A DNA stretch of 64,000 bases from Entomoplasma ellychniae (GTDB lineage: Bacteria; Bacillota_I; Bacilli_A; Mycoplasmatales; Mycoplasmataceae). Within the stretch, counting starts at the first letter, position 1. Every line of letters begins with the position of its first letter. Under the pieces are notes generated by a model. The model worked only from the letters and a program-made list of their open reading frames with translations, was not told where the DNA came from and did not search any database. Of the stretch, positions 7,286 to 42,984 are shown one piece after another. Made by a program: the position numbers and the translations under genes. Where the stretch lies: the NCBI RefSeq assembly GCF_002930155.1, contig NZ_PHND01000001.1:620001-684000 (forward strand), read 5' to 3'.

Positions 7286-8998
7286 ATGTCAAAAATAAAA
7301 TTTATGGCAATTGGTGGACAAGATGAAAGAGGTAAAAACCTTTTTGTTTTAGAAATTGGTGAAGAATTATTTATATTAGATGCAGGTGTAAAATACCCTG
7401 ATAAAGGTATTTTAGGAGTAGATATAGTTATTCCTAAATTAGATTACATCATAGATAACAAAAAAAGAGTTAAAGGAATTTTTTTAACAAACTCTGCCAG
7501 TTATAATATGGGGGCTGTTCCATATATTTTAAAGCACATGGATGTACCAGTTTATTGTAATGAAATTACAAAATTAATATCATCAATTAAAATTTCTAGA
7601 ATGAGAATTAAAAATAATAAAGATCAAAATTATAAAGTTGTAAAAGATAAAGACGTATTGGAAGCTGGAAATGTAAAAGTAGAAGTTTTTAGAACAACGT
7701 CTGCATCTCCACAATCTTTTGGTTATGCTTTTCACACTGAACAAGGTGTTGTTGTATATGTTGGGGATTATATAATTGATGGTCAAGAACAATCTTACTT
7801 TTCAACAGATTTTAACCATTTATCAGATATTGGTAAAAAAGGCGTTTTAGCTTTAATAGCAGATAGTGAATATGCTTCAAGAAGTGGTTTCACAGCTCCA
7901 AATCATAAAATTCAAGACTTTATTTCGATCCCTTTTAAAGAAAAGAAAACAAGAATAGCTATTGGGATTTTTGAAGAAGACATTTTTAAACTTGGTGAAA
8001 TATGTAAAGTTGCTAAAGAAAATAATAGAAAGATCGCTGTTTATGGGCGTTTGATGGCACAAGTATTAAAATCAAATTTAATTAGTAAAAATCTTAATAT
8101 TCTTCCGGAAGATATTATATCTATTGAAGAATACATGAAATCAGACAATGGTGTTTTGATAATTTCTGGAACTGTGGATGTACTTTATTCTAAATTAACT
8201 AAAGTAGCAACTGGAAATGATGATGTAGTTGAATTAACATCAAAAGATTTAATGATATTAGCAACTCCACCAGCCCCTGGAATAGAAAAAAAACATGCTC
8301 AAATTCTAGATGAATTGGCAAGAACAGATGCAAGGCTTATAGCTTTAAGTGACAGAAATATTTGAACAATGCATGCTTCTTATGAGGATGTGAAAGTTTT
8401 AACAAGTATTGTTAGACCAAAATATTTTATACCAGTTAAATCTTTATTTAAAGATGGTTTAAAAGCAGAAAGCGCTGCAATTGAAGCTGGTGTTTTACCA
8501 GAAAATATTGCTGTTATCAATAACGGTCAAGTTCTTGATTTAACAAGAAAAGTTTTAACTATAGAGAAGAAAAATGTTGATTTTGGTAATACATATGTTG
8601 ATGAGATAGGTATTGGTGATGTTGGAACAATAGTTTTAAATGAAAGAAGACAATTGGCTACAGATGGTGTTATTATACTTGGTGCTACAATAGACTCAAG
8701 AAACAAGGAATTAGTTTCAATGATTGATACTCAAATGCGCGGTGTTGTTTATATTCAAGAAGATAACCCAATATTCAAAATTATTCAAAAAGATATTGAG
8801 TTATCAATACAACAAGGGCAAAGTCTATTTAAAGAAAACCCTAAGAAATATGACTTAAATGAAATTAAAAAAGAAATTGTAACTAAGGTTAGAACTTCGA
8901 TAAAACAAGAGTCTGGTAAACAACCAATTGTGCTTTGCATAATTAACGAATTCAATGGTGTAAATTTTGTATTTAAAAATAAAAAAAATAAGGTTTAG
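7286..8998 (+). CDS. RNase J-type metallo-beta-lactamase/beta-CASP protein with a lost active site
   Basis: The 570-residue protein aligns along its length with RNase J: N-terminal strands KIKFMAIGGQDERGKN, the beta-CASP region, the STNA-like ADSEYASRSGFT and a C-terminal domain. The metal-binding HxHxDH motif is replaced by an NSASYNMG segment near residues 70-77. The later HxSGH-type motif reads MHASYED. It is therefore probably not a nuclease by itself and may be a structural partner of an active RNase J, as Bacillus J2 is of J1. I start at the ATG with the AGGAG site rather than an upstream TTG. The N-terminal TGA-free region and later UGA Trp fit the host code. Confidence 0.82.
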
Positions 8999-9173
8999 TA
9001 CAATTTACTTGCCTTTTTTTACTTTTTTTACTTTTTGTTTTAAAAAGTCACATTTAATGATATTTAACATCTTGATTTCAATGCAATTATAAGGTATCAT
9101 TATAAATAATTAATGTTTTTAAACAGCATTTTTATGACCATTTAAAAAAATAAATAGATAGGAAATTACAAAG

Positions 9174-11147
9174 ATGAAAAACAAACAAGAAACTATAATT
9201 TCATTTAATGATGTTATCGTAAAAACCAATACAAGAGGTAAAACATTAAACGTAATTAAAAATATTTCATTCGATGTTTATGCAAATGAAATATTAGCTA
9301 TTGTTGGAAAGTCAAATACAGGTAAAACTGTATTGACAAAAGTTTTAAGTAATTCACTAAATCAAAACTCTTATGTTTCAAACGGGACTATTATGTACTA
9401 TCCAACAAAAGCAACTATTGATGAAGGCAAAGACCACATATTATCTCCAATTGATTTAGTGAGTTATCAAAAAAGTAACTTATCTAATGTAACAAAAAAT
9501 ATCATTACTCTTACAAATAAAACAATAATTGATAAAGCGGTTATTAAAATTTACAAATTGAGACAAGAAATATCAAAAATACAACAAGAAGAAGCACATA
9601 GACAAACTGTAATGTTTAAATCTATTTTAGATAAAACAGTCAGAATGTCTCAATATGAAAAAACTCAGCTACACTCATCAACTTATTTAAAAGACAAGAA
9701 TGAGTCAATTAATAACAACACATCTCCATCAATGCCTCTCATCAATAAGCTATTAAAAAGAATTCAAAAACATGAAAATGCAATTGATAAATCATTTTTA
9801 ATTCTTGCAAATACAATAGACCAAAAAGAAGAAATAGTGCATTATAAAGTTATAGAATATCATAAAAATGAAATTAAAAATATTAAATCAGCAATTTCTC
9901 AAATTCAAATTAGTGTAGCAAAAACAAATTATACATTTATGAAATCGTTAAAAAGTGATATTAAGTTTTTATTAAATAATGAAGAATTTTTAAACGTTGA
10001 GACAAGGAAAGCTTCTTTAAGAAAAATGAAGTACTACAACCAAATTTTAAAATTGGATCAAAATGAAGTGATTTTATTAAAAATGAAGTTAATAGATGAT
10101 CAATTAGAAATTATTAGAAGAGCTAATTATGAACTTTCAAATTTCAAAAAGTTAAGTGATGGTTCTATTGAAAACCTTTCTTTATTAATGCAAGATATTC
10201 AAATAAATAAAGATTCTATTAAAATGGTTGAAAAAAGTTTAATAGAAGACGGATTAGAATATTTGGGAAAAAAAGAATTTTTAACAGATTTTGAAAACAA
10301 CTTAATTAATTTAGTTTCAAAAATACTAGTTGAAAAAAAAGTTTCAAAAGAAGAAATTAATAAAGTTCTGGCACAATGAAACTTTCAAAAACATAAACCT
10401 TCTAAAAATAGGTCAGAGTCACAAAAAGATTTAAAATTTGTTAACGAAGAGGTTATAAGCACAATTTTTGAAAGCATAAACCAATCTTTAAAACCAGATG
10501 TTAAGATAGGACATCAAATTTCTGATATTATTGCTTCAACAAAAAGACTTTCAAAATCTGAAGCTCACTTAAAAGCTTTGGAGTTATTACATAGGTTAGG
10601 TCTTGTCAATGCTGAAGAAATATTTAATATGCTGCCATCACAATGCTCTGACACTATTAATCAATTAGTCGTAATTGCAAAATCAGTTTCATCTTCTCCA
10701 AAAGTTTTAGTTTGAGATGAAACAGCAAATTTACTTGGATCAAACATTAAAAATCAGCTATTAAAATTAATTATAGAACTTAAAGAAGAACTGAATTTGA
10801 CTGTGATTTTATTTACACAGTCGTTTGAAATTCCTTCAAAAATAGCTGATAGAATAGCTGTTATTCATGATGGTGAAATTGTTGAGTATGGAAATACTAA
10901 AGAAATTATTAATAATGCAATTCACCCAGAATCGATTGCATTAAAATTAAATATAAAAGAAATATTTCAAGAAGAAAATCATGATAATATTTCAGACAAT
11001 TTATTTAATAATTTTAATGAAAAATTATTAAGAAAAAATTATGCTGAAAAAAAATATGAGTTAGTTCCTAACAAGTTTTCTAAAATAACAAAATCACATT
11101 TTGTAAAAGAAGAATTTAAAATTAAAGCAAGAAGAGGTAAAAAATAA
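9174..11147 (+). CDS. oppD: Divergent OppD-like ABC transporter ATPase with a large helical insertion
   Basis: The 657-residue protein has an ABC ATPase split by about 330 residues of charged, helical sequence. Walker A reads GKSNTGKT near 45-52 (the fourth position is Asn instead of Gly). The insertion follows. The signature region reads SQCSDTINQ rather than LSGGQ, and Walker B is VLVWDETANLL. The C-terminus carries the H-loop-like FTQSFE region and an Opp-type tail. Similar insertions occur in Mollicute OppD/OppF. The substrate is presumably peptide, but the permeases and binding protein are not adjacent and the signature is degenerate. Its stop overlaps the next gene. Confidence 0.65.
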
Positions 11148-32040: not shown

Positions 32041-32745
32041 ATTTATTTGTAGAACCATTAATTTTGGTGTGAATATAATCTCCTAAGTATAGTATTTCAA
32101 GAATAAAAATATATTCTTGCTAATATTTTAACTAAAGGAGATTTTTTTATAGACAATATTAAATGTAAAAAATCAAATATTAAATCCTTTGAAGAAAAAA
32201 TGCAAATTATTAATGATCGCTATAAGATTTAATTAACTTTTAGATTGTTGGCTATTAAAATATTTTTTCGTTATTGTACTGTTAGAAGATGGTGTTCAGA
32301 TTAAAAAATAAACAGAAAAAACTACATTTATAAAATTACTAATAGGAAAGGTCGAAATAATGAGATTAAAGAATTGTGCTGCGAGAAAAACTCTTTAGAG
32401 CACAAAAATCATGAAATAGTGAGATTAAAAAATAAAGTAAGAGAGATTAAGGTGAAACTTTTTTTAGCAGTTGAAAAAATGAATGATTGCAAAATTTTCA
32501 AACTGAAAACTTTGAATCTATTAGGAATAAAGATTTTTAATATACAGACTATTATAACTTTAAAAGAATAAAAATAAAAAACACTCCATAAAACTATGAA
32601 GTGCTTTCTAGTATTTCAATAATTTAAACTACTTTTTTAAATTGACAAACTGCAAATCTTATGATTTAAGTATTACATAAGTTCTACAGTTGTAATGATT
32701 ATAATTAATATTAATAAAGTATTTAAAAATTTTTATAATTCTAAA
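32041..32745. other. Degenerate left edge of the accessory island
   Basis: No intact gene is visible. CAAGAAT/ATTCTTG (32098-32119) forms a hairpin that may end deoD. A well-spaced AAGGAG at 32138 is followed by an open frame whose start codon reads ATA, and the frame soon stops. The stretch to 32573 looks like a decayed IS orfA. An imperfect hairpin lies near 32585-32607. This marks the transition from core to accessory DNA. Confidence 0.4.
32150..32573 (+). pseudogene. Decayed IS3-type orfA-like fragment
   Basis: Two fragments in this stretch resemble the start (SFEEKMQIINDRY) and the leucine-zipper-like end (EIVRLKNKVREIKVKLFLAVEKM) of IS3-family orfA proteins. Stops and shifts lie between them. 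No transposase catalytic part remains. The family call rests on pattern only; random AT-rich coding could mimic the charged helix. Confidence 0.3.
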
Positions 32746-32898
32746 TTATTCTGATTTTTCTGATTCTCTGGGTATATTACATATCACTGTACATTTAAGA
32801 GAAATTCAGAAACTTTCGATATCAGTTTGAATTAAAGAGTTATTAGGATCAATACCGTTAAAAAACTCATAATTATTTAAATCAAGAACATTATTCAT
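32746..32898 (-). CDS. Candidate class III lanthipeptide precursor (50 residues, contains UGA-Trp)
   Basis: This short ORF lies back-to-back with the LanKC-like synthetase, 83 bases away, with a strong AAAGGGGGG ribosome site 6 bases before its ATG. The peptide has an acidic, Asn-rich leader starting MNNVLDLNNYEFF, reminiscent of hydrophobic-acidic LanKC recognition helices. A short C-terminal core follows: SFWISLKCTVIC (residues 29-40) and then NIPRESEKSE. Ser29, Ser33, Thr37, Cys36 and Cys40 could supply dehydrated residues and thioethers. The spacing S-x3-S-x2-C is close to, but not identical with, the labionin pattern S-x2-S-x(2-5)-C. Trp31 is TGA, so standard-code gene finders would truncate it. 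No leader peptidase is apparent. Precursor status is inference from context. Confidence 0.65.
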
Positions 32899-32922
32899 AT
32901 TATCCCCCCTTTCTTAGTAGAT

Positions 32923-32964
32923 ATTATAATACTTTTTAAAATATAATTCATATTATGGTATAAA
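32923..32964. promoter_or_regulatory. Divergent promoter region of the lanthipeptide cluster
   Basis: The 83-base gap between the precursor and the synthetase holds a near-palindromic ATTATAAT at 32923-32930, giving a minus-strand TATAAT for the precursor. A TATAAA at 32959-32964 serves the synthetase. No convincing -35 boxes are seen, so control may need an activator. Confidence 0.45.
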
Positions 32965-32981
32965 ATATAAAAAAGGAATTT

Positions 32982-33545
32982 ATGAAAACACATTCTTATG
33001 AAAAAATTTTAAATAAATTTAATATAAATTATACGGAAGATTTATTTTACTTTAAATCTTGCTGTATTGATGATAAAAAAAATATAATAATGGGATGAAA
33101 AATTCATATTTCTAGTGATATTTTATCTTCAAATTATTTATGTGAGACAATAATTCGATATTGTAAAATTAATTCATTAAATTTTAAAATTTTAAAAAAT
33201 TCAGAAATTCTCTTAAATTCATTAAGTAAAAAAAGTAGGCAAGAGCAATTAGGAAAATTTATAACTATTTATTTCAATTCAAAAAAATCTTTTATTAATA
33301 ACATTGAAAATATTTATATCTTAATAGATTCTAAAAAGGCTAATGGACCATACATTTATACAGACAAAAGATATAAAGATTCTAAAGTAATATATTATAG
33401 ATTTGGAGCTATTTATCCAAGAATTTTATTAAATGAATTTGGAGATCCTTATTTTTATTATAAAAAAAATAAAATACTATTAAATTCTGAAAATTATTAC
33501 AAAGTATTTGAAAAAGATAAAAAGCTCTTGATGAGTTGTTTTTAA
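32982..33545 (+). CDS. LanKC-type lanthipeptide synthetase, N-terminal lyase-like part (before the frameshift)
   Basis: This 187-codon frame carries the N-terminal domain typical of class III/IV synthetases. GWKIHISSDILSSNY lies near residues 37-51, KFITIYFNS near 92, and GPYIYTDKRYKDSKVIYYRFGAIYP near 115-140 (short cores GPYIYTDKRY and YYRFGAIYP). In LanKC/LanL this domain eliminates phosphate from phospho-Ser/Thr to give dehydroamino acids. The frame ends in TAA. The protein logic continues in the -1 frame, where the next frame reads KALDELFLKYNKYEFKKI. The change falls at TAAAAAG (33518-33524), and one additional A would fuse both parts. Its start has a GGAA ribosome site. The gene is more AT-rich than the core. 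Confidence 0.8.
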
Positions 33546-35320
33546 AATACAATAAATACGAATTCAAAAAAATCAATAAACTTTATAAAATTATTTCAAT
33601 TTTACATAAGTCAAGTACGGGGAATATATATTTAGGCGAGTTTAATAATCAAAAAATTATTGTAAAGGAATACAGACCATATACTAATATTGATTCTAAC
33701 AATCGTGATTCTATTTTCTTCGCCAAAAATTCAATAAAAATAAGAGAAAAAATTAAAAATTTGACTGCAATTCCTAAATTAATTGATTATTTTTGAGAAT
33801 GAGAAAATTTCTTTATAGTTGAAGAATACATTGAAGCCAAAAAATTAAGTAATGTTATAAATCACAGAAACTGTTTTTTTAAAAACTTTAATTCAATTTT
33901 ATATATCGACACATATAATTATAAAAAATTTGCTCTTCAAATTTTTCTTCAAATTTTTTTAATTTATCAAGAAATGCGCAAAAATAAAATATTTCATGGA
34001 GATTTTAGTCTTGAAAATATTTTATTAAACAGTAAAAATAATGTTTATCTAATAGATTTTGACCATGCATATTTTAAAAATGAAAAGAAAAAACATTTCA
34101 CAATATACGGTAATTATTCTAATTACAAAATTGGCTTGAATAAAAACAATAGAGATTTGTATTCGTTGGGTTGCATATTCGTTAATATGTTTAAAAATAA
34201 GAGTTCATATTTAAAAAATAAATCTTCTTCTAAAAAAATAATTTCAGATATAATCAATGATTTTGATTTTTCAAAAAATATTCAAAAAATAATATTAAAT
34301 TTGGTTATTAAATCTAAAGCAAAATTAAAAAAAGTACATAAGATTTTAGAAGAAGAATTACAAAATATGGATATTTTTTACTTACTTCAAAATAAAATTG
34401 AATTTTATGAAAAAAACATAAAACTCACTACTTTAAATAAAAGACACACTCTCTTATTTAAAGCAATTACAGGCAATCTCAATATACAAAAAGAGGAAAA
34501 TGTTTTCGACATTATATTAAAAATAACTAATAACTTCTCTATAAATAAAAATTTTTTATTTAGTAACATAAATTTTTTAGAAAAATATGAAAAATGCAGC
34601 ATAAAAAAAATAATAAGTGTATCTTCTGAAAAAGATATTCTTTTACTTGGTTGCATATTATGCTTTCATTATTTAAAAATAAAAGAAAACACAAATTTTT
34701 TAAAAAATTGAATATTTGAAAGTTTTGATAAAATTGTGTTTTTCAATCAAAGTCAAAATCACGAAAATAATATTAAAATAAATCATTTATTTTATTTAAA
34801 AATGATGTTTTTAAATTTATATTATAAAATAGAACCAAAAAAACAGGTATTTAAATATATTGAAATATATGTAGATATTATTTTGCAGAAGACAGTAAAA
34901 TACAACCATCTCTATCTTATTAGAGACGGTTTATATTTAAAACCGGGACTTTTTGAAGGTATGTCAGGTTTCGTTTTAAATTTTAATTTCTTTCCTTCAA
35001 AAATAATTGAAAATAATAAGACAAAGTTTGATCAAATTTTAAAATGTTCTTTCATTATAAATTCAAATTCAAGTTCTTTATCGAATGGCTTAGCGGGTTT
35101 TGCATTAGCAAACACAATATTAAACAAAAATAATAATACTGATTATTTAATTAAAATTATCAAAGAAATTGAATTAATGGAGATAAAGAATAAAAATTTT
35201 ATTTATTTTTTAAATAAAGATAAATCAGTTTATTCTAATGATTTTTCATTCGGAACTTTAGGAGTTTTATTTTCTTTGAAAATGATATTAATTTTTATAA
35301 AAATAGAATTAAAAATATAA
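33536..35320 (+). CDS. LanKC-type lanthipeptide synthetase, kinase and cyclase-like parts (after the frameshift)
   Basis: The open frame begins at 33521; TTG at 33536 is its first start-like codon. Counting from there, the 594-residue part has a kinase with P-loop HKSSTGNIYLG (24-34), the ATP-anchoring lysine in IIVKEYRPY (Lys44), catalytic loop HGDFSLENILL (Asp156, Asn161) and metal motif IDFDHA (Asp174). This kinase would phosphorylate Ser/Thr of the precursor. From about 400 on, a LanC-like cyclase region shows GLFEGMSGF, SNGLAGFAL and FSFGTLGVLF repeats. The Cys-Cys-His zinc site of LanC/LanL is missing, which fits class III LanKC. With the first part the enzyme totals about 775 residues, somewhat short. 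Two Trp codons are TGA. Confidence 0.8.
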
Positions 35321-35403
35321 AATAAGTAGCAGTTGTTGAAGGGTATTATATTTTGATGATTTTGTAAAATGTAGTATGCTGTTTATGTTTTAAAACTGCA
35401 AAA

Positions 35404-35445
35404 AATCTATTTAATAATAGATTTCCAACATTTTATTTTTTTAAA
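35404..35445 (+). terminator. Hairpin after the synthetase gene
   Basis: AAATCTATT/AATAGATTT stem of 9 bp with a 4-base loop, followed after a few bases by a T-rich stretch. It would separate synthetase and transporter transcripts. Confidence 0.55.
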
Positions 35446-35449
35446 GTCT

Positions 35450-35455
35450 ATAATA
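35450..35455 (+). promoter_or_regulatory. -10 box of the first ABC transporter gene
   Basis: TATAAT lies 19 bases before the start. The surrounding CTATAATACTTTAAAAG closely matches the promoter of the nearby IS3 orfA, hinting that expression signals were shared or recruited. Confidence 0.5.
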
Positions 35456-35474
35456 CTTTAAAAGGAAGATTATT

Positions 35475-37079
35475 ATGAAAAAATATAAAGTTATTTTATC
35501 ATTTGTTATTTTTTTAGCTTTTTGTGAAGGTTTTTTGATGGTGATTTCATCATATTCAACTTCTTTTATTGGCAATTCTTTAGAAAAAGAAACTCCATTT
35601 GTTCAAATTATAATTATTCTATCCATTATAGTAGCTCTTACTTTAATTTATTACTTTTTTACGATGATGAACGGTTACTTTCAGCAAAGATTATGAAAAC
35701 GTTTAATTTTTAATTACAAAATGAGAATAAATCATTATTTAGTAAATAATTCTACTGAATTATTAAGAACTGATAAAGTCCAAGATTTTGAAGCTGTTTT
35801 TCTTAATGATGCTGAAATCATTAGAGAAAACCGATACGCCATAGCAATCAATTTTTTTAGTTTATCAATTGAAATGATCACAGCCATTGGGATTATCATC
35901 TATAATATTTTAACTAAAAAAGATTTTATTTATTTGTGAGTTGTTTTAATTGTAGTGGTTATTAGTTTACTTATTTTTTTAAATTATAATTTTTGAAATA
36001 AAAAACTAAGAAAAAACCAGGAAAATTTTTCTCAAAATAATCATTTATATAATAAAAATTTAAATTCTATTCTTCATGGGTATCAGATTATTTTTGGAAA
36101 TAATTTAATCAATTTATTCAAAGATAAAATGAATAAAGTTAATACAGATTATGAAACTAAGGATTTTACTAATCAATATCAAAAAAATATTTTAAATACA
36201 CTTTTAAAGTTAGGTAATTATTTTTCAACAATATTAATAACAATTATAACTATTTATCTTTGAATAAAAAATATCATAACTTTAGGTGAAAGTATCGCAA
36301 TAAGTTCATTATCGATAAATTTAATTAATTCAATTGTAAGTTTTTTACAAAATTTGGCAGTTTTTAATTCAACTAAAAATATTTTTAATAAATATAATGA
36401 TAAAAATCATAATCTTGAGTTTAACTTTGAATCCGAACAAGTTCAAACGATTGAATTTGAAAACGTTCAAATAAAATATGGTGATAAAGTTGTTATTAAA
36501 AACTTTAATCAAAAATTTGAACTTAATCAAAAATATTTATTAAGTGGGCCTAGTGGAACAGGCAAAAGTACATTAGTTAAAAGTCTAATTCAATTAACTC
36601 AAATAAGTGAGGGTAACATTAAAATCAATGGCAAAACCATAGATGATAAAAACTTACCAAATTTAAAAAACCAAATAGCATATATTGATCAAAATACCTA
36701 TCTTTTTGATGATTCAGTGGCTTTTAATATTGCTTTAGATGAAGAATATGATGTAAACAAAATTAATCAAATTCTCGATTTAATCAAATTACCACAACTA
36801 AAAATTACTGCTAAAAATGATCAAATCAATTTAGGTGGAGAAAATGATAAGTTATCTGGGGGTGAAAAACAGCGAATTGGTTTAGCAAGAGCTTTGTATA
36901 CTGATAAACCCATTTGAATAATTGATGAAAACACCTCAAATTTAGATAAATTAAATAAAGAGATAATTGAAAAGATTATTTTAACTCAAAGAAATAAAAT
37001 GATTATTATGATTAGCCACGATTTATTAAAAGAAAATTATCAATATTTGGACCATGAAATTAAACTAAATACCAATTAG
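35475..37079 (+). CDS. ABC half-transporter 1 of the lanthipeptide cluster (membrane plus ATPase)
   Basis: This is a 534-residue exporter-type ABC protein. About six membrane helices fill residues 1-295. The ATPase follows with Walker A GPSGTGKST near 355, Q-loop region YIDQNTYLFDDSVAFNIAL, signature LSGGEKQR near 458 and Walker B IWIIDENTSNLD near 480. It lacks the C39 peptidase domain that trims double-glycine leaders, so leader removal would need another protease. Its ATPase closely resembles that of the next gene, which starts 11 bases downstream; the two likely form a heterodimer. Export of, or self-protection from, the modified peptide is inferred from position. Confidence 0.8.
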
Positions 37080-37090
37080 AAAGGAAATTT

Positions 37091-38647
37091 ATGAAAAAAT
37101 TTAAAATATTAGTATTTTTTACTGCTTTACTTATTATTTTTCAAAGTACAGTATATTTATTTTTATCATTTATCATTTCTTTTTTAGGTAAAACAAACTC
37201 TGATTTGATAAAAACAGTTTTAATTTTAGCAATTTATCCAATTTTATGAATTGTGTGGTTATCTTCTAAAATTCTGCAAGACTATTTAAAAAATAAATGT
37301 TTAAAATTAATGATGCTAAATTATAAAAGTAAAATTACCACTTATATAGTTAATCATTCATTTCAAGATTTTGAAGATATGAAATTCAATGAATATAAAT
37401 CTAATTTTATGAATGATGCGAAAATGATAAGAATTCGATATTCTATTTATTTTGTATTAATTGAAAATACAATAACTATTCTTGTAGCAGCAGGGATGTT
37501 AATTTATATCTCCCCAATTTTATTTGGAGCTAGTTTTGGGTTTAGCATAATTACTTTACTTATTTCAATTTATGCAGGAACAATGTTAATGAGGTGAGTT
37601 GAAAAAATATCACTTAATAATGCTAGCTATGTTCATAAATTAAATAACTTATTAAAAGGCTTCCAATTAATGTTTTCTAATTCTAAAATCAAAATATTTC
37701 AAAAAAAATTAGATAATTTTAATGATGAATTTGAAACAAACCACGCTAAATTTATTTGTAAACAATTTAAATGGTCAATTCCTTTTGGGTTAAATAATCG
37801 CTTAAGTTGATGTATATGTTTAATTTTAAATGCTTATTTATTATATTCAAAACAAATAACTGCTGCAGAATTTATTGCTGTCATTCCAATTTTTACTAAT
37901 TTCAATAATGAGTTAATTGGAGTTTTTGAATCAACAGCTAACTTGTTTTCAACTAATTCAATTAATCGAAAATTCAATTTAGAAAATGAGTTGAATATTT
38001 CTAGTGGTAATCAATTTAAAAAGGTTGAAGAAGTTAGTTTGCAAGGTATTAGTATTAGTTATAATGAAAAACCAATTATTAACAATTTATCATGTGATTT
38101 TAAAGCTAACCAAAAATATTTATTGAGCGGAAAATCAGGGGCTGGAAAAACCACACTAATAAAAACAATTGTTGGTTTTAAAAATATTAATCAAGGAGTC
38201 ATTTCAGTTAACAATCAAATCATTGATAATAAAAATCTATATGATTTTAAAAATCACATCAGTTATGTCGAACAAAATACATACTTATTTGATGATACTG
38301 TTGGTTTTAATATAGCTTTGAGCGATCATTACGATATAGACAGAATTAATGCAATTTTAAAATTAATTCAATTGGATTCTATTGCTAATTTTGATCACAG
38401 CACAATTATTGGTGGGGATAGTGATAAAATTTCTGGTGGTCAAAAACAACGAATTGGTTTAGCTAGAGCATTATATTTAAATCGTCAAATATGATTGATT
38501 GATGAAACTACTTCTAATCTTGACAAAGAAAATAAATATATTATTGAAAATATCATTTTAAATCAAAAAGATAAAATTGTTGTTATGATAAGTCATAATT
38601 TAAGCAAAGAAAATCAAAGTAAAATTAATCAAATAATCACAATATAA
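37091..38647 (+). CDS. ABC half-transporter 2 of the lanthipeptide cluster (membrane plus ATPase)
   Basis: This 518-residue homologue of the preceding protein probably arose by tandem duplication. The motifs YLLSGKSGAGKTTL, VEQNTYLFDDTVGFNIAL, ISGGQKQRIGLARALY and IWLIDETTSNLD line up one for one with its neighbour. Both ATP sites appear canonical. Six membrane helices precede the ATPase and there is no peptidase domain. It has an AAGGAAAT ribosome site and is followed by a strong terminator, closing the two-gene unit. Trp codons are mostly TGA. Confidence 0.8.
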
Positions 38648-38657
38648 TTTCAAATGC

Positions 38658-38698
38658 AAAAAACTTGAGCGAACTGTCTGTTTTTCTCAAGTTTTTAA
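38658..38698 (+). terminator. Intrinsic terminator after ABC half-transporter 2
   Basis: AAAAACTTGAG/CTCAAGTTTTT forms an 11-bp stem around a 16-base loop, with a T-run in its descending arm. Confidence 0.8.
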
Positions 38699-38714
38699 AT
38701 GACATCATTGGCTT

Positions 38715-38804
38715 TTATTTTTCAACATATTTTTTAGAAGCTTGACAAAACTTTGAAGCATGACTGTGATGACCAACATCAATTTCACCTGAATAAATCC
38801 TCAA
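38715..38804 (-). pseudogene. C-terminal relic of an unrecognised gene
   Basis: A 29-codon minus-strand frame ending in TAA reads as ordinary protein (SGEIDVGHHSHASKFCQA, then SKKYVEK). It has no start or upstream continuation. It looks like the surviving tail of a lost gene. The family is not recognised. The remainder of the 38648-38975 gap holds the terminator and a ribosome site for the next transporter. Confidence 0.3.
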
Positions 38805-38975
38805 CTTAACTTAATAAAACAATCTTATATTTTCACCATTTTTTATCTTCGTTAATTTAATTAATGCACTAATTAAAAAGGCAAAAAAGAATATTTATCG
38901 CCACTTATTTATTATTATTACTCATTTTATTTGAAATTATGATAATATTGTAAAAATTAGATATGGAGGAATAAA

Positions 38976-40586
38976 ATGAAGAAAATAATTCTTTTCAAAA
39001 ATCATAAAGGGCATTTAGCTATTTATATTACTTTAAGTATTATTCAAAATATTAGTGTCGTTTTATCAACATATTCTTTAGGGATGGTGCTAAAAAATGC
39101 TGTACCACCTATTTCAGATTTTACAAGGGCAGGTTATCTATCCTTATTTACTATAACACTATTCTTATTATCAGCATTTTGTAGTTATATTAATACAATT
39201 GTAAAAACTGATTTAAGCAAAAAAATTAAAATCGATTTGATAAATATCGTTATTTTAAAAATATTTTCTTATAATTTGCAAGAATTTAATGAAAATAAAA
39301 AAGGAGAATACTTATCTTGAATTAACAATGATGTGGAAAATATTGAAAGTGGAGTTTATTCATTATTTCTTATTTTTTTAGATTCATTTTTTAGCATTAT
39401 TTTCACATTCATTGCCTTAGCTTTTATTAGTTGAATAGTATTATTGATTACAATATTTTTTTCTTTATTATTTTTAGTTGTCCCTTATTTTATGAAAAAA
39501 AGAATTACTAAAAATATTATTAATTCTTCACTTTCTTCTGCTGATTTTATTAGTAGAACAGAAAATTTGATGAATGGTTATGAAGAATTTTATGCAAGTA
39601 ACAAAAGTAATATTTTAAGAAGTTTAATAACTACAACTGGGTTAAATTATGAGAATGTCAAACAAAAACAAACACTAACAGTTAATAAACTGCTTTTATT
39701 TATGCACTCTTTTATTATCTTTGTAAAATTTGCTGTTATTGTTGCTGTTATTATTTTATCTTCATCTTATGAATGAATAATAAAGGGTGGACCATTAATG
39801 GTCTTATCAATTGAACCACTATCATATTCTTTTGTAATTCAATTTTCTAATATTATTACGAATCTTACCTCATTTTTTTCTCATACTGAATTAGCAAAGA
39901 AATTTAATGTTAACAATAAAGAAGCTAAAATAAGTAAAATAAACTTTCAAAATTTAAAAATTAATAATTTAAACTATAGTATTGAAAATAAAGAAATAAT
40001 TCATAATCTATCATTTGATATTAAAAAAAATGAAAAGATATTAATCATTGGAGAGTCAGGAGCTGGTAAATCAACGATATTTAATATTTTAATGAAAAGA
40101 GTAAAAGATTTTTCTGGACAAATTTATTTTAATGATAATAAAAAAATAAATTATAATGAAATAAATGATAGATCTTTATTTCAATTCATTGATTTTCTTA
40201 ATCAACACCCATTGTTTTTTAATGATACTCTTAAAAATAACTTAACGCTATTTGATGAAAATATTGAAGAAAATGATATTTTAAACGCTTTAAAAAGAAC
40301 TAACATGATTAAATGGTTTGAACAAAATGGTAGTGATTTAAATACGATGATTAATAGTGAAAATAAAAATATTTCGTCTGGAGAAATGCAAAGATTATCT
40401 TTAGCAAGAGTTTTACTTAGAAATAAAGAGTTATTATTTTTGGATGAAGTAACTGCTAATTTAGATATCGATAATCGCAGATTAATTGAAGAAATAATTT
40501 TAAATTCTGATAAAACAATTTTATTTATTTCTCACTCAATAGAAGAAGAAAATAAATCAAAGTTCGATAAAGTTATTCAAATTTAA
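38976..40586 (+). CDS. ABC half-transporter 3 (membrane plus ATPase)
   Basis: This is a 536-residue exporter-type ABC protein, less like the two upstream ones. About six membrane helices lie in residues 1-305. The ATPase has Walker A GESGAGKST near 359, signature ISSGEMQR near 468 (Ser for the first Gly) and Walker B LLFLDEVTANLD near 488. There is no C39 peptidase. It has a GGAGG ribosome site. Being a single gene, it may work as a homodimer. Role in secretion or immunity is inferred from location behind the synthetase and paired transporter. Confidence 0.78.
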
Positions 40587-40614
40587 TTTTGGTATTGAAA
40601 GGAGGCTATAAAAA

Positions 40615-40704
40615 ATGATATTTTTCGCTCAAAAACAACCCAAGCTTGAAATTGACAGAATTATTGTTCGTCCAGATGGATCAATTGAAATAATATTTAA
40701 ATAA
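40615..40704 (+). CDS. Small ORF (29 residues), perhaps the tail of a lost recombinase
   Basis: Starts 9 bases after a strong AAAGGAGG site. The peptide MIFFAQKQPKLEI continues RIIVRPDGSIEIIFK. The ending strongly resembles the last strand of large serine recombinases (IxxIxVxxDGxIEIxF). It has no cysteine and so is not a second lanthipeptide candidate. It could be a translated relic fused to a new ribosome site, or a genuine tiny protein. Confidence 0.4.
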   Translation: MIFFAQKQPKLEIDRIIVRPDGSIEIIFK

Positions 40705-40834
40705 AAGATATAGAATCGGTTAAAATAAAACTCAATTATAATGCTAAAATCAACGCATATAATAGACTGAACCCCGAAAAGTAAGTACAAAATAAAACTT
40801 GTATAATACTTTAAAAGAAAGGGGTTCTTTTACT

Positions 40835-41110
40835 ATGGGAAAAAAAGGACAAAAATATAATAAATACACAATTGAATTTATTAATGAGGTTCTTAAAGAA
40901 CGCGAAAAAAACGGAATTAATTCAACCTCGCAAAAATTTCAAATACCATCAGGTACTATAAAAACTTGAAAGCATAAGTATAAAAATCATGAAACAATTG
41001 TAAAACAGAAAAAGGGTTTCGGAAAAAAAGATGAAAAAAATTATAAAGAGAGGTATGAAGTTCTAAAAAAGTTCATTGACTTCTTGGAAAGCCAAGAAGG
41101 TTCAAAGTAA
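40835..41110 (+). CDS. IS3-family transposase OrfA
   Basis: The 91-residue helix-turn-helix protein (YTIEFINEVLKEREKNGINS, then TSQKFQIPSGTIKTWKHKY) is of the kind that binds IS ends. The C-terminus is a charged helix (KNYKERYEVLKKFIDFLE) usual for the leucine zipper of OrfA. Its ribosome site is AAAGGGG. The stop overlaps the orfB ATG (TAATG) instead of an A-tract slippage site. This copy cannot mobilise alone since orfB is truncated. Confidence 0.8.
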
Positions 41111-41535
41111 TGTTTATCAGAGAAAATCTTAAAAATTATAAATTATCTTTAATGTTAGATGTTTTAGCATTAAAAAGATCTTATTGAGATAAATACAAAA
41201 ATTTTGTTTTTGATGAAAAGGATAAAATTTGTTTACAAGAAATTAAAAAGGTTTTTGATGAAAATTTAAAACAATTTGGCTATCGAGAAATAGATAAGGC
41301 CCTTAGACGAAAAGGCATAACTATTAATCATAAAAAGATTCTCAGAATAATGAATACCTATGGTATTCGCGCCCATTACGTTAGAAAAATGATTAAAAAA
41401 GCTTCAATTAACAAAATTCTACAAAGTTACATCAATGTTCATCCAGATCTAATTCAAAGAAAATTTAATCAAGTTAAAACTAGATTTTCTGTTTTATTCT
41501 GTCGAATTGTAAGTGATAATGTCTCAATGAATTAG
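41110..41535 (+). pseudogene. Truncated IS3-family transposase OrfB
   Basis: The first 130 residues show the OrfB N-terminus (NYKLSLMLDVLALKRSYWDK) and the HTH_21 region (GYREIDKALRRKGITINHKKILRIM, seen as GYREIDKALRRKG and NHKKILRIMNTYGI). The frame then breaks off in VKTRFSVLF, just where the DDE catalytic core should begin. About two thirds of the protein is lost next to the ISNCY-like element. It cannot be an active transposase. Confidence 0.78.
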
Positions 41536-41539
41536 AAAG

Positions 41540-42984
41540 TAGAAATGTCTTAAAGCCTTAAAAATATATTTGAGGTGTTGAAATGAGAACAGAGGTAAAC
41601 TATATCAAAAGAAATGCATTCGAATTTATTGAACAAGTAATGAAGGGCAAGGTTACAAAACAAAAAGCAGCAATCATACTTAATTGCACAATAAGAACGA
41701 TCAATAGAAAAATAATAAGATATAAACAAAATGGTATAAAAGGTTTTATTCATAAAAACTGTAATAAAAAATCTAATCAAGCAACACATAAAGTTGTAGT
41801 TGACAAAATTTTAAAACTAAGATATGAAATTTACTATGATTTTAGTTATATACATTTTTGAGAAAAATTAATTCAAGATCACGATATTAAGATTTCTTAT
41901 AAAACATTAATTTTTATTCTTGAAAAACAGTATATTATTTCACCTTTTTAACACCGTTCAACTAGAAAGAAAATGGCCAAGAAAATTATGGAAGATAAAA
42001 GCGTTGACCAACAGGATTTTAAACAATTTTTAAATGAGAGCATTTTAGACTCCAAATCTGCTCATCCTTTACAACCAAGAAAAATTTTTTTGGTGAATGT
42101 GTACAAACAGATGTTCTATTCATAATTGAATTGAAAAGGAAAAGTGAGCACTACATGCTTTTATTGACGATTCAACTGCAATAGTACTTTCTGCTTATTT
42201 TGATAAACAAGAAACTTTAAACGGCTATTATAGGGCTACAAAACAAATGTTTGAGAACTATAGAACATGAAAAGAAGTGCTTACAGACAAAAGAACAGTC
42301 TTTTATTCAACTAAGAAAAACACAGATAAAAATGATGCGAACACACAATATGGATTTATGTGTAATCAATTATAAATAATTTTAACTTGTACATCAGTAG
42401 CTCAAACAAAAGGTAAGATTGAAAGACTATGAGGAAGCTTTCAAAAGCGCATTCCTCAAGAGTTAAGATTAGCTTGTATAAACGATATCAATTCAGCTAA
42501 CGAATGAATCAAAGAATTCATTCAAAATTATAATGCAAAGTATACCTTTAAAATAGACGAAACAAAAAATTTATTTGTGCCTTGAGAAGCCCATGAAGTT
42601 GATATGGATTTTGCTCTTTCGACTCACTATAGCAGAAAGGTTTTAAATGGTTCAACCATTAAGTTTGAGAATAAAATTATGCAACTTTTGATAAAAGTGG
42701 CACAAGAGTTAATTTAGCTAAAAAGCAAGAAGTAATGATTGTTAAAGCTTTCACTGGTGAAATATTTGCAAACTATTACACAAACTTTTATTCATTAATA
42801 GAAATTGACAAAGAAAAATTTGGGTTAGAAAATATAAATATTGAAGTGTCAAAAATTAATAAAACTAAAACAACTAGCAATAAATGAAAAAATTCAAACT
42901 GAATTTATTATCAAAAAAAGTGGAAAGAACAATCTTCCACTCTTAAATTTAGTATTTAATTTAACTTTTTTTGGGACATTTCTA
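41540..42984 (+). mobile_element. Decayed ISNCY/IS1202-like insertion sequence
   Basis: The imperfect terminal repeats are TAGAAATGTC at 41540-41549 and its complement GACATTTCTA at 42975-42984, with similar flanking bases. They enclose 1.4 kb filled by one broken transposase gene. It abuts the truncated IS3 element, so it probably inserted into or recombined beside it. A target duplication is not obvious. Confidence 0.65.
41583..42960 (+). pseudogene. Broken ISNCY-type DDE transposase
   Basis: The N-terminal part (to the stop at 41949) has a helix-turn-helix (KVTKQKAAIILNCTIRTINR) and YYDFSYIHFWEKLIQDHDIKISY. Reading on gives HRSTRKKMAKKI and SAHPLQPRK. In a shifted frame come the DDE-domain pieces ALHAFIDDSTAIVLSAYFD, KEVLTDKRTVFYS, QTKGKIERLWGSFQKRIPQE and the tail WEAHEVDMDF. 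Several stops and shifts prevent a full product. The motif order matches ISNCY/IS1202 transposases. Confidence 0.7.

What the first reader, a model, noticed from the sequence alone, without database searches (positions are those of the whole stretch)
32746..40704. Class III lanthipeptide gene cluster in a Mollicute
A LanKC-type synthetase with all three parts (lyase-like GPYIYTDKRY region, kinase with VKEYRPY/HGDFSLEN/DFD, zinc-less LanC-like GxxG repeats) is flanked by a divergent small peptide ORF with Ser/Thr/Cys-rich end. Three exporter-type ABC half-transporters follow. Sequence shows the enzyme and transporters; the assembly into one biosynthetic system is inference from order. Lanthipeptide loci are familiar from Firmicutes and Actinobacteria. 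One in a minimal, wall-less genome using UGA for Trp would be a notable setting, since the producer has no cell wall of its own and so would be indifferent to wall-directed products.
Basis: partly seen in the sequence, partly recalled or inferred. Interest (0 to 1): 0.92.

Follow-up and report, generated by a model that had tools for sequence, protein, structure and literature searches.

The report
Broken lanthipeptide gene cluster in Mollicutes
A tiny wall-less bacterium carries genes for making a ring-containing peptide of the lanthipeptide kind; about one in thirteen of the related species searched carry the same kind of genes, apparently undescribed, but in this genome the key enzyme gene is cut in two by a one-letter slip.

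Summary
The locus is real and belongs to the class III lanthipeptide kind. The lyase part (32982-33545) and kinase-cyclase part (33536-35320) match ThurKC and other LanKC synthetases by profile, sequence and predicted fold, and seven of eight lyase residues known from ThurKC are present. The divergent 50-aa ORF (32746-32898, minus strand) is a credible precursor: strong ribosome-binding site, class-III-like leader MNNVLDL, core SFWISLKCTVIC with two [S/T]xxC units, its Trp written TGA.

(1) LanKC is not one open frame: a one-base slip at an A5 run (33519-33523) splits lyase from kinase. In 372 genes compared with a relative it is the only frameshift found, so it is probably real and production is probably off or conditional in this strain. 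(2) The setting is not unique: 25 of 320 genomes of the order (9 genera, 3 families) carry the lyase domain, usually as a compact single-ORF LanKC beside ABC half-transporters, with short [S/T]xxC precursors upstream (12 of 23 loci against 0.09 expected). They form one clade, sister to Enterococcus gallinarum. No paper describing lanthipeptides in Mollicutes was found. Product, leader protease and function remain unknown.

The parts
32746..32898 (-). Candidate precursor LanA, 50 aa: MNNVLDLNNYEFFNGIDPNNSLIQTDIESFWISLKCTVICNIPRESEKSE (Trp31 is TGA)
   Evidence: the only upstream ORF passing the precursor screen; 0 of 300 shuffles of this region give one; resembles the E. gallinarum precursor MNTVLNLQ...
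32779..32814 (-). Predicted core S29-C40 (SFWISLKCTVIC): possible rings S33-C36 and T37-C40
   Evidence: Sequence; the [S/T]xxC motif recurs in Mollicute precursors; ring pattern inferred
32904..32912 (-). Shine-Dalgarno-like AAAGGGGGG of the precursor gene
   Evidence: Sequence
32575..32610 (-). Terminator-like hairpin downstream of the precursor gene
   Evidence: Consensus scan: 3 found in the region against 0.7 expected; weak
32982..33545 (+). LanKC lyase part, 187 aa
   Evidence: RamC_N E 3.9e-26; ThurKC E 1.2e-17; K40 H42 K69 K83 K92 D128 R140 match ThurKC K65 H67 K94 K108 K117 D152 R163
33519..33523 (+). A5 run (GATAAAAAG) where the LanKC frame breaks; downstream part is in the -1 frame
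   Evidence: only frameshift among 372 genes compared
33536..35320 (+). LanKC kinase and LanC-like cyclase part, 594 aa (open frame from 33521, TTG start at 33536)
   Evidence: NCBIfam LanKC E 4e-43; ThurKC E 2e-19; fold search ranks only lanthipeptide synthetases first
35475..37079 (+). ABC exporter half-transporter 1, 534 aa, no peptidase domain
   Evidence: ABC_tran E 2e-26, ABC_membrane E 4e-8
37091..38647 (+). ABC exporter half-transporter 2, 518 aa, 36% identical to 1; possibly its partner
38976..40586 (+). ABC exporter half-transporter 3, 536 aa, closest to the ABC next to the intact LanKC of G027 (33%)

Best explanation
A Mollicute-type class III lanthipeptide locus whose synthetase gene has recently been split by a one-base frameshift. 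In intact relatives, a short precursor is bound through its N-terminal leader helix by LanKC. The kinase phosphorylates Ser/Thr in a short C-terminal core, the lyase removes the phosphate to give dehydro residues, and the zinc-less LanC-like domain joins them to Cys as four-residue (methyl)lanthionine rings ([S/T]xxC). Adjacent ABC half-transporters export the product, and an unidentified protease removes the leader. Shown: enzyme family, catalytic residues, gene neighbourhood, precursor family, frameshift. Inferred: substrate pairing, ring pattern, export role, secretion, activity. In the sequenced strain production is most likely off, or depends on frameshift bypass or on the two polypeptides working in trans.
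For: Profiles. ThurKC matches for lyase and kinase; the intact relative's LanKC at E 9e-42. Lyase residues K40, H42, K69, K92, D128 and R140 invariant in 20 Mollicute sequences; 7 of 8 ThurKC residues present in the window (PMC10604976). Kinase D156, N161, D174 invariant. Cyclase profile match. Fold search: the top 20 hits are all lanthipeptide synthetases. 25 of 320 genomes, 9 genera, 3 families. ABC half-transporter beside LanKC in 22 of 24 loci not at a contig edge (counted). Precursor screen 12 of 23 loci, shuffles mean 0.09 and maximum 1, control upstream regions 6 of 202. One Mollicute clade (SH-aLRT 91) with E. gallinarum as sister, which has the same precursor-LanKC-ABC order. Frameshift isolated among 372 genes / 116,696 codons.
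Against: LanKC is not a single frame here. ThurKC R191 aligns to Glu170 in the window (alignment uncertain). The cyclase is short and diverged, so ring formation is less sure than dehydration. The window precursor lacks the Gln of LxLQ (it has VLDLNN) and lies on the opposite strand, unlike most relatives. No leader protease was identified. No transcript or product data exist.
Confidence: 0.82

Rival explanations
1. The frameshift is a switch (phase-variable A run or ribosomal/transcriptional slippage at the lyase-kinase linker), so a fraction of cells or transcripts make full-length LanKC.
For: Break lies at the domain boundary; a LanKC in another family (L032) breaks at the same linker in an A8 run, also needing -1; the rest of the cluster is intact.
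Against: A5 is short for slippage, TAAAAAG is not a full -1 slippery heptamer, and downstream RNA folds no better than shuffles (z -0.37). Other broken Mollicute LanKCs break elsewhere.
Confidence: 0.15
2. A two-piece synthetase: lyase and kinase-cyclase are translated separately (TTG start overlapping the lyase stop) and act in trans.
For: Both halves are complete at the domain boundary; ThurKC domains can act without covalent linkage (PMC10604976).
Against: TTG start with a poor ribosome-binding site; ThurKC lyase alone was insoluble; 17 relatives keep one ORF.
Confidence: 0.1
3. The frameshift is an assembly error and the gene is intact.
For: It sits in a homopolymer run; only one genome of the species is held.
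Against: No other frameshift in 372 genes.
Confidence: 0.1
4. LanKC and the ABC genes are unrelated neighbours and the small ORF is chance.
For: Mollicutes have many ABC half-transporters; the ORF is small and divergent.
Against: Conserved LanKC-ABC adjacency and precursor enrichment far above shuffles and control regions.
Confidence: 0.04

Closest known systems
Class III lanthipeptide synthetases ThurKC (andalusicin), PneKC, SalKC, CurKC
   Same: Lyase-kinase-zinc-less cyclase order; catalytic residues; fold
   Different: Mollicute enzymes are shorter (about 610-770 aa against 850-930), mainly in the cyclase; this one is split; cores are [S/T]xxC rather than SxxSxxxC
Enterococcus gallinarum LanKC locus (L052)
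   Same: Nearest sister in the tree; short precursor MNTVLNLQ...FTFKC, compact LanKC (766 aa), one peptidase-less ABC half-transporter
   Different: Standard genetic code, walled host, precursor on the same strand, intact synthetase
Intact loci of relatives G027/G037 (sizes fit Mesoplasma coleopterae and M. entomophilum)
   Same: Same family; LanKC is one 763-aa ORF with a precursor bearing a textbook ILDLQ leader and an ABC
   Different: Placed directly behind a 5S rRNA gene; single-ring core ITIIC; one ABC; no frameshift
Class IV LanL synthetases
   Same: Kinase-lyase-cyclase logic
   Different: NCBIfam LanL scores lower than LanKC on both halves (57 against 104 bits; 73 against 148 bits); no zinc ligands conserved

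Membership tests
Class III lanthipeptide synthetase (LanKC) | N-terminal RamC/OspF-like phospho-Ser/Thr lyase with catalytic residues | tested here: met
   7 of 8 ThurKC residues
Class III lanthipeptide synthetase (LanKC) | Ser/Thr kinase domain with Lys, HxD-type Asp and DF(D/E) | tested here: met
Class III lanthipeptide synthetase (LanKC) | LanC-like cyclase without zinc ligands | tested here: met
   Profile match E 2.5e-10 over the last repeats, no conserved Cys/His ligands; domain shortened
Class III lanthipeptide synthetase (LanKC) | All three domains in one polypeptide | tested here: not met
   Frame break at 33519-33523 in this genome; met in 17 Mollicute relatives
Class III lanthipeptide synthetase (LanKC) | Score above the curated NCBIfam equivalog cut-off (575 bits) | tested here: not met
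   103.5 and 147.9 bits for the two halves
Class III lanthipeptide precursor | Leader with LxLQ-type helix | tested here: inconclusive
   Window VLDLNN lacks the Gln; L004 ILDLQ and E. gallinarum VLNLQ meet it
Class III lanthipeptide precursor | Core with Ser/Thr and Cys spaced for (Me)Lan or labionin | tested here: met
   Two [S/T]xxC units; the SxxSxxxC labionin motif is absent
Class III lanthipeptide | Dehydrated, thioether-bridged product | not testable with these tools
   Needs mass spectrometry

The most novel reading that the evidence does not exclude
Mollicutes hold an old, widespread and overlooked family of very short class III lanthipeptides ([S/T]xxC rings), whose production is repeatedly switched or lost by frameshifts in LanKC, in this strain by a reversible or bypassed slip at the lyase-kinase linker.
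Probability: 0.2. Interest if true: 0.82.

Novelty: new variant of a known kind. Interest (0 to 1): 0.7.

Why it matters
Bacteria with near-minimal genomes are generally treated as poor in natural products. It would also supply very compact LanKC enzymes and one- or two-ring substrates useful for enzymology. Mining with the standard genetic code would tend to miss such clusters, since TGA interrupts the enzymes and, here, the precursor core itself.

Tried and rejected
C39-peptidase ABC as the linked leader protease: present in 280 of 317 genomes of the order, so not specific. Programmed -1 frameshift with a stimulatory structure: no unusual RNA fold and no full slippery heptamer. A common split LanKC architecture in Mollicutes: first suggested by short open-frame values, then rejected because most loci are single ORFs. 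LanKC-adjacent protease: ORFs between LanKC and ABC in L023/L024 are transposases. The genome-contig scan returned named non-Mollicute LanKCs but no Mollicutes. Promoter scan: no more hits than in shuffles.

Full report
Observation. With UGA read as Trp, the stated region holds a 50-aa ORF on the minus strand (32746-32898), two overlapping ORFs on the plus strand (32982-33545 and 33536-35320) and three ABC half-transporters ending at 40586. The first plus-strand ORF matches Pfam RamC_N (E 3.9e-26), and both match the NCBIfam class III LanKC model, better than the class IV model. The two halves match the solved class III synthetase ThurKC at E 1.2e-17 and 2e-19. A predicted structure of the kinase-cyclase half is of moderate confidence (mean pLDDT 66.6), but its 20 best PDB matches are all lanthipeptide synthetases (ThurKC, SalKC, PneKC, CurKC, CuvL), ahead of every other kinase.

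Catalytic residues. Seven of the eight ThurKC lyase residues discussed in PMC10604976 are present in the window: K65, H67, K94, K108, K117, D152, R163; R191 aligns to Glu. Six of these columns are invariant in 20 Mollicute lyase domains. The kinase keeps the catalytic Asp, Asn and DF-motif Asp in all 18 sequences aligned. The cyclase is short and diverged; profile-profile comparison with non-Mollicute LanKC cyclases gives probability 96.8 and E 2.5e-10 over the last repeats, and no zinc ligands are conserved.

Frameshift. The lyase frame reads ...EKDKKLLMSCF*, and the kinase part is in the -1 frame (KALDELFLKYNKYEF...), meeting at GATAAAAAG, 33516-33524. In two relatives of the same family the corresponding LanKC is one 763-aa ORF. 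To judge assembly quality I compared 464 kb of this genome with a relative: 372 genes and 116,696 codons, and the only frameshift-like case is this LanKC. Genome size (900 kb) and GC (26.25%) fit Entomoplasma ellychniae, reported at 900 kb, 26.2% GC, Illumina about 880x (PMC6117150); this naming is inference from size and GC only. The break is therefore probably real. Of the other Mollicute loci, 17 have a single-ORF LanKC and seven (L025, L031, L032, L036, L038, L039, L040) are broken. L032 breaks at the same linker, in an A8 run. L038 breaks there too but has lost lyase catalytic residues, so I do not read it as a functional split.

Distribution and history. PF25816 is found in 25 of 320 genomes of the order, in 9 genera and 3 families. 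An even draw from the class finds one further genome outside the order. A tree of 60 lyase-kinase sequences puts all 20 Mollicute rows on one side of a branch (SH-aLRT 91, quick method, composition bias noted), with the window beside its two family members (99) and Enterococcus gallinarum as sister. The cluster is AT-richer than the genome (GC 21% against 26%), so transfer is not excluded.

Precursors. A mechanical screen (ATG with ribosome-binding site, 30-70 aa, [S/T]xxC in the last 20 residues, within 420 bases upstream) finds a candidate in 12 of 23 loci, against a mean of 0.09 and a maximum of 1 in 300 shuffles, and 6 of 202 control upstream regions. For the window itself no shuffle gives one. 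Examples: MTINEILDLQINTEKETPVFASEAIIQITIICKA (L004), MDSVNSLQSLDLNN...ECAITFFCTTIVCK (L018, ahead of the ABC pair), and MNTVLNLQAFKEDSTVSPNSIFTFKCQISLKVPATK (E. gallinarum). The cores lack the labionin SxxSxxxC pattern; four-residue (methyl)lanthionine rings are inferred.

Transporters. ABC half-transporters without a peptidase domain lie beside LanKC in 22 of 24 loci not cut by a contig end (counted). In the window there are three: 1 and 2 are 36% identical, and 3 is closest to the ABC of G027. The leader protease is unknown; the C39-peptidase ABC elsewhere in these genomes is near-universal in the order and so not specific.

Literature. No held paper joins LanKC with Mycoplasma or lanthipeptide with Spiroplasma. 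The large lanthipeptide survey PMC7268733 places most class III and IV enzymes in Actinobacteria and Firmicutes, and its text names no Mollicutes, Tenericutes or Mycoplasma. A lung-microbiome survey found no clusters in two Mycoplasmatota, and an antiSMASH search of Hepatoplasmataceae was negative. Only open-licence papers were searchable, so prior description elsewhere is possible.

Verdict. A class III lanthipeptide locus of a Mollicute subtype, compact and probably inactivated or conditional in this strain. It is a new variant of a known kind; the main interest is the unnoticed breadth of the family in minimal, wall-less bacteria.

Noticed in passing
window 40799-42521: Consecutive IS3-type transposase fragments in several frames, a decayed insertion sequence next to the cluster.
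   Followed up: no
L125:1498-3315 (G000 at about 821 kb): C39-peptidase ABC protein whose ATPase part shows no obvious Walker A motif, possibly a degenerate exporter.
   Followed up: no
L036 (G120), LanKC at 8260-9871: LanKC is in fragments while the precursor (...WITIICKITTEKCSK) and both ABC genes look intact.
   Followed up: partly
L038 (G241) 8246-10245: A RamC_N-LanKC-like pair that has lost the KxH and other lyase residues; a second, frameshifted copy (L039) lies on another contig of the same genome.
   Followed up: partly
L004:5480-5760: In G027 and G037 the lanthipeptide genes sit directly behind the 5S rRNA gene, so read-through from the rRNA operon is possible.
   Followed up: no
   Followed up: partly
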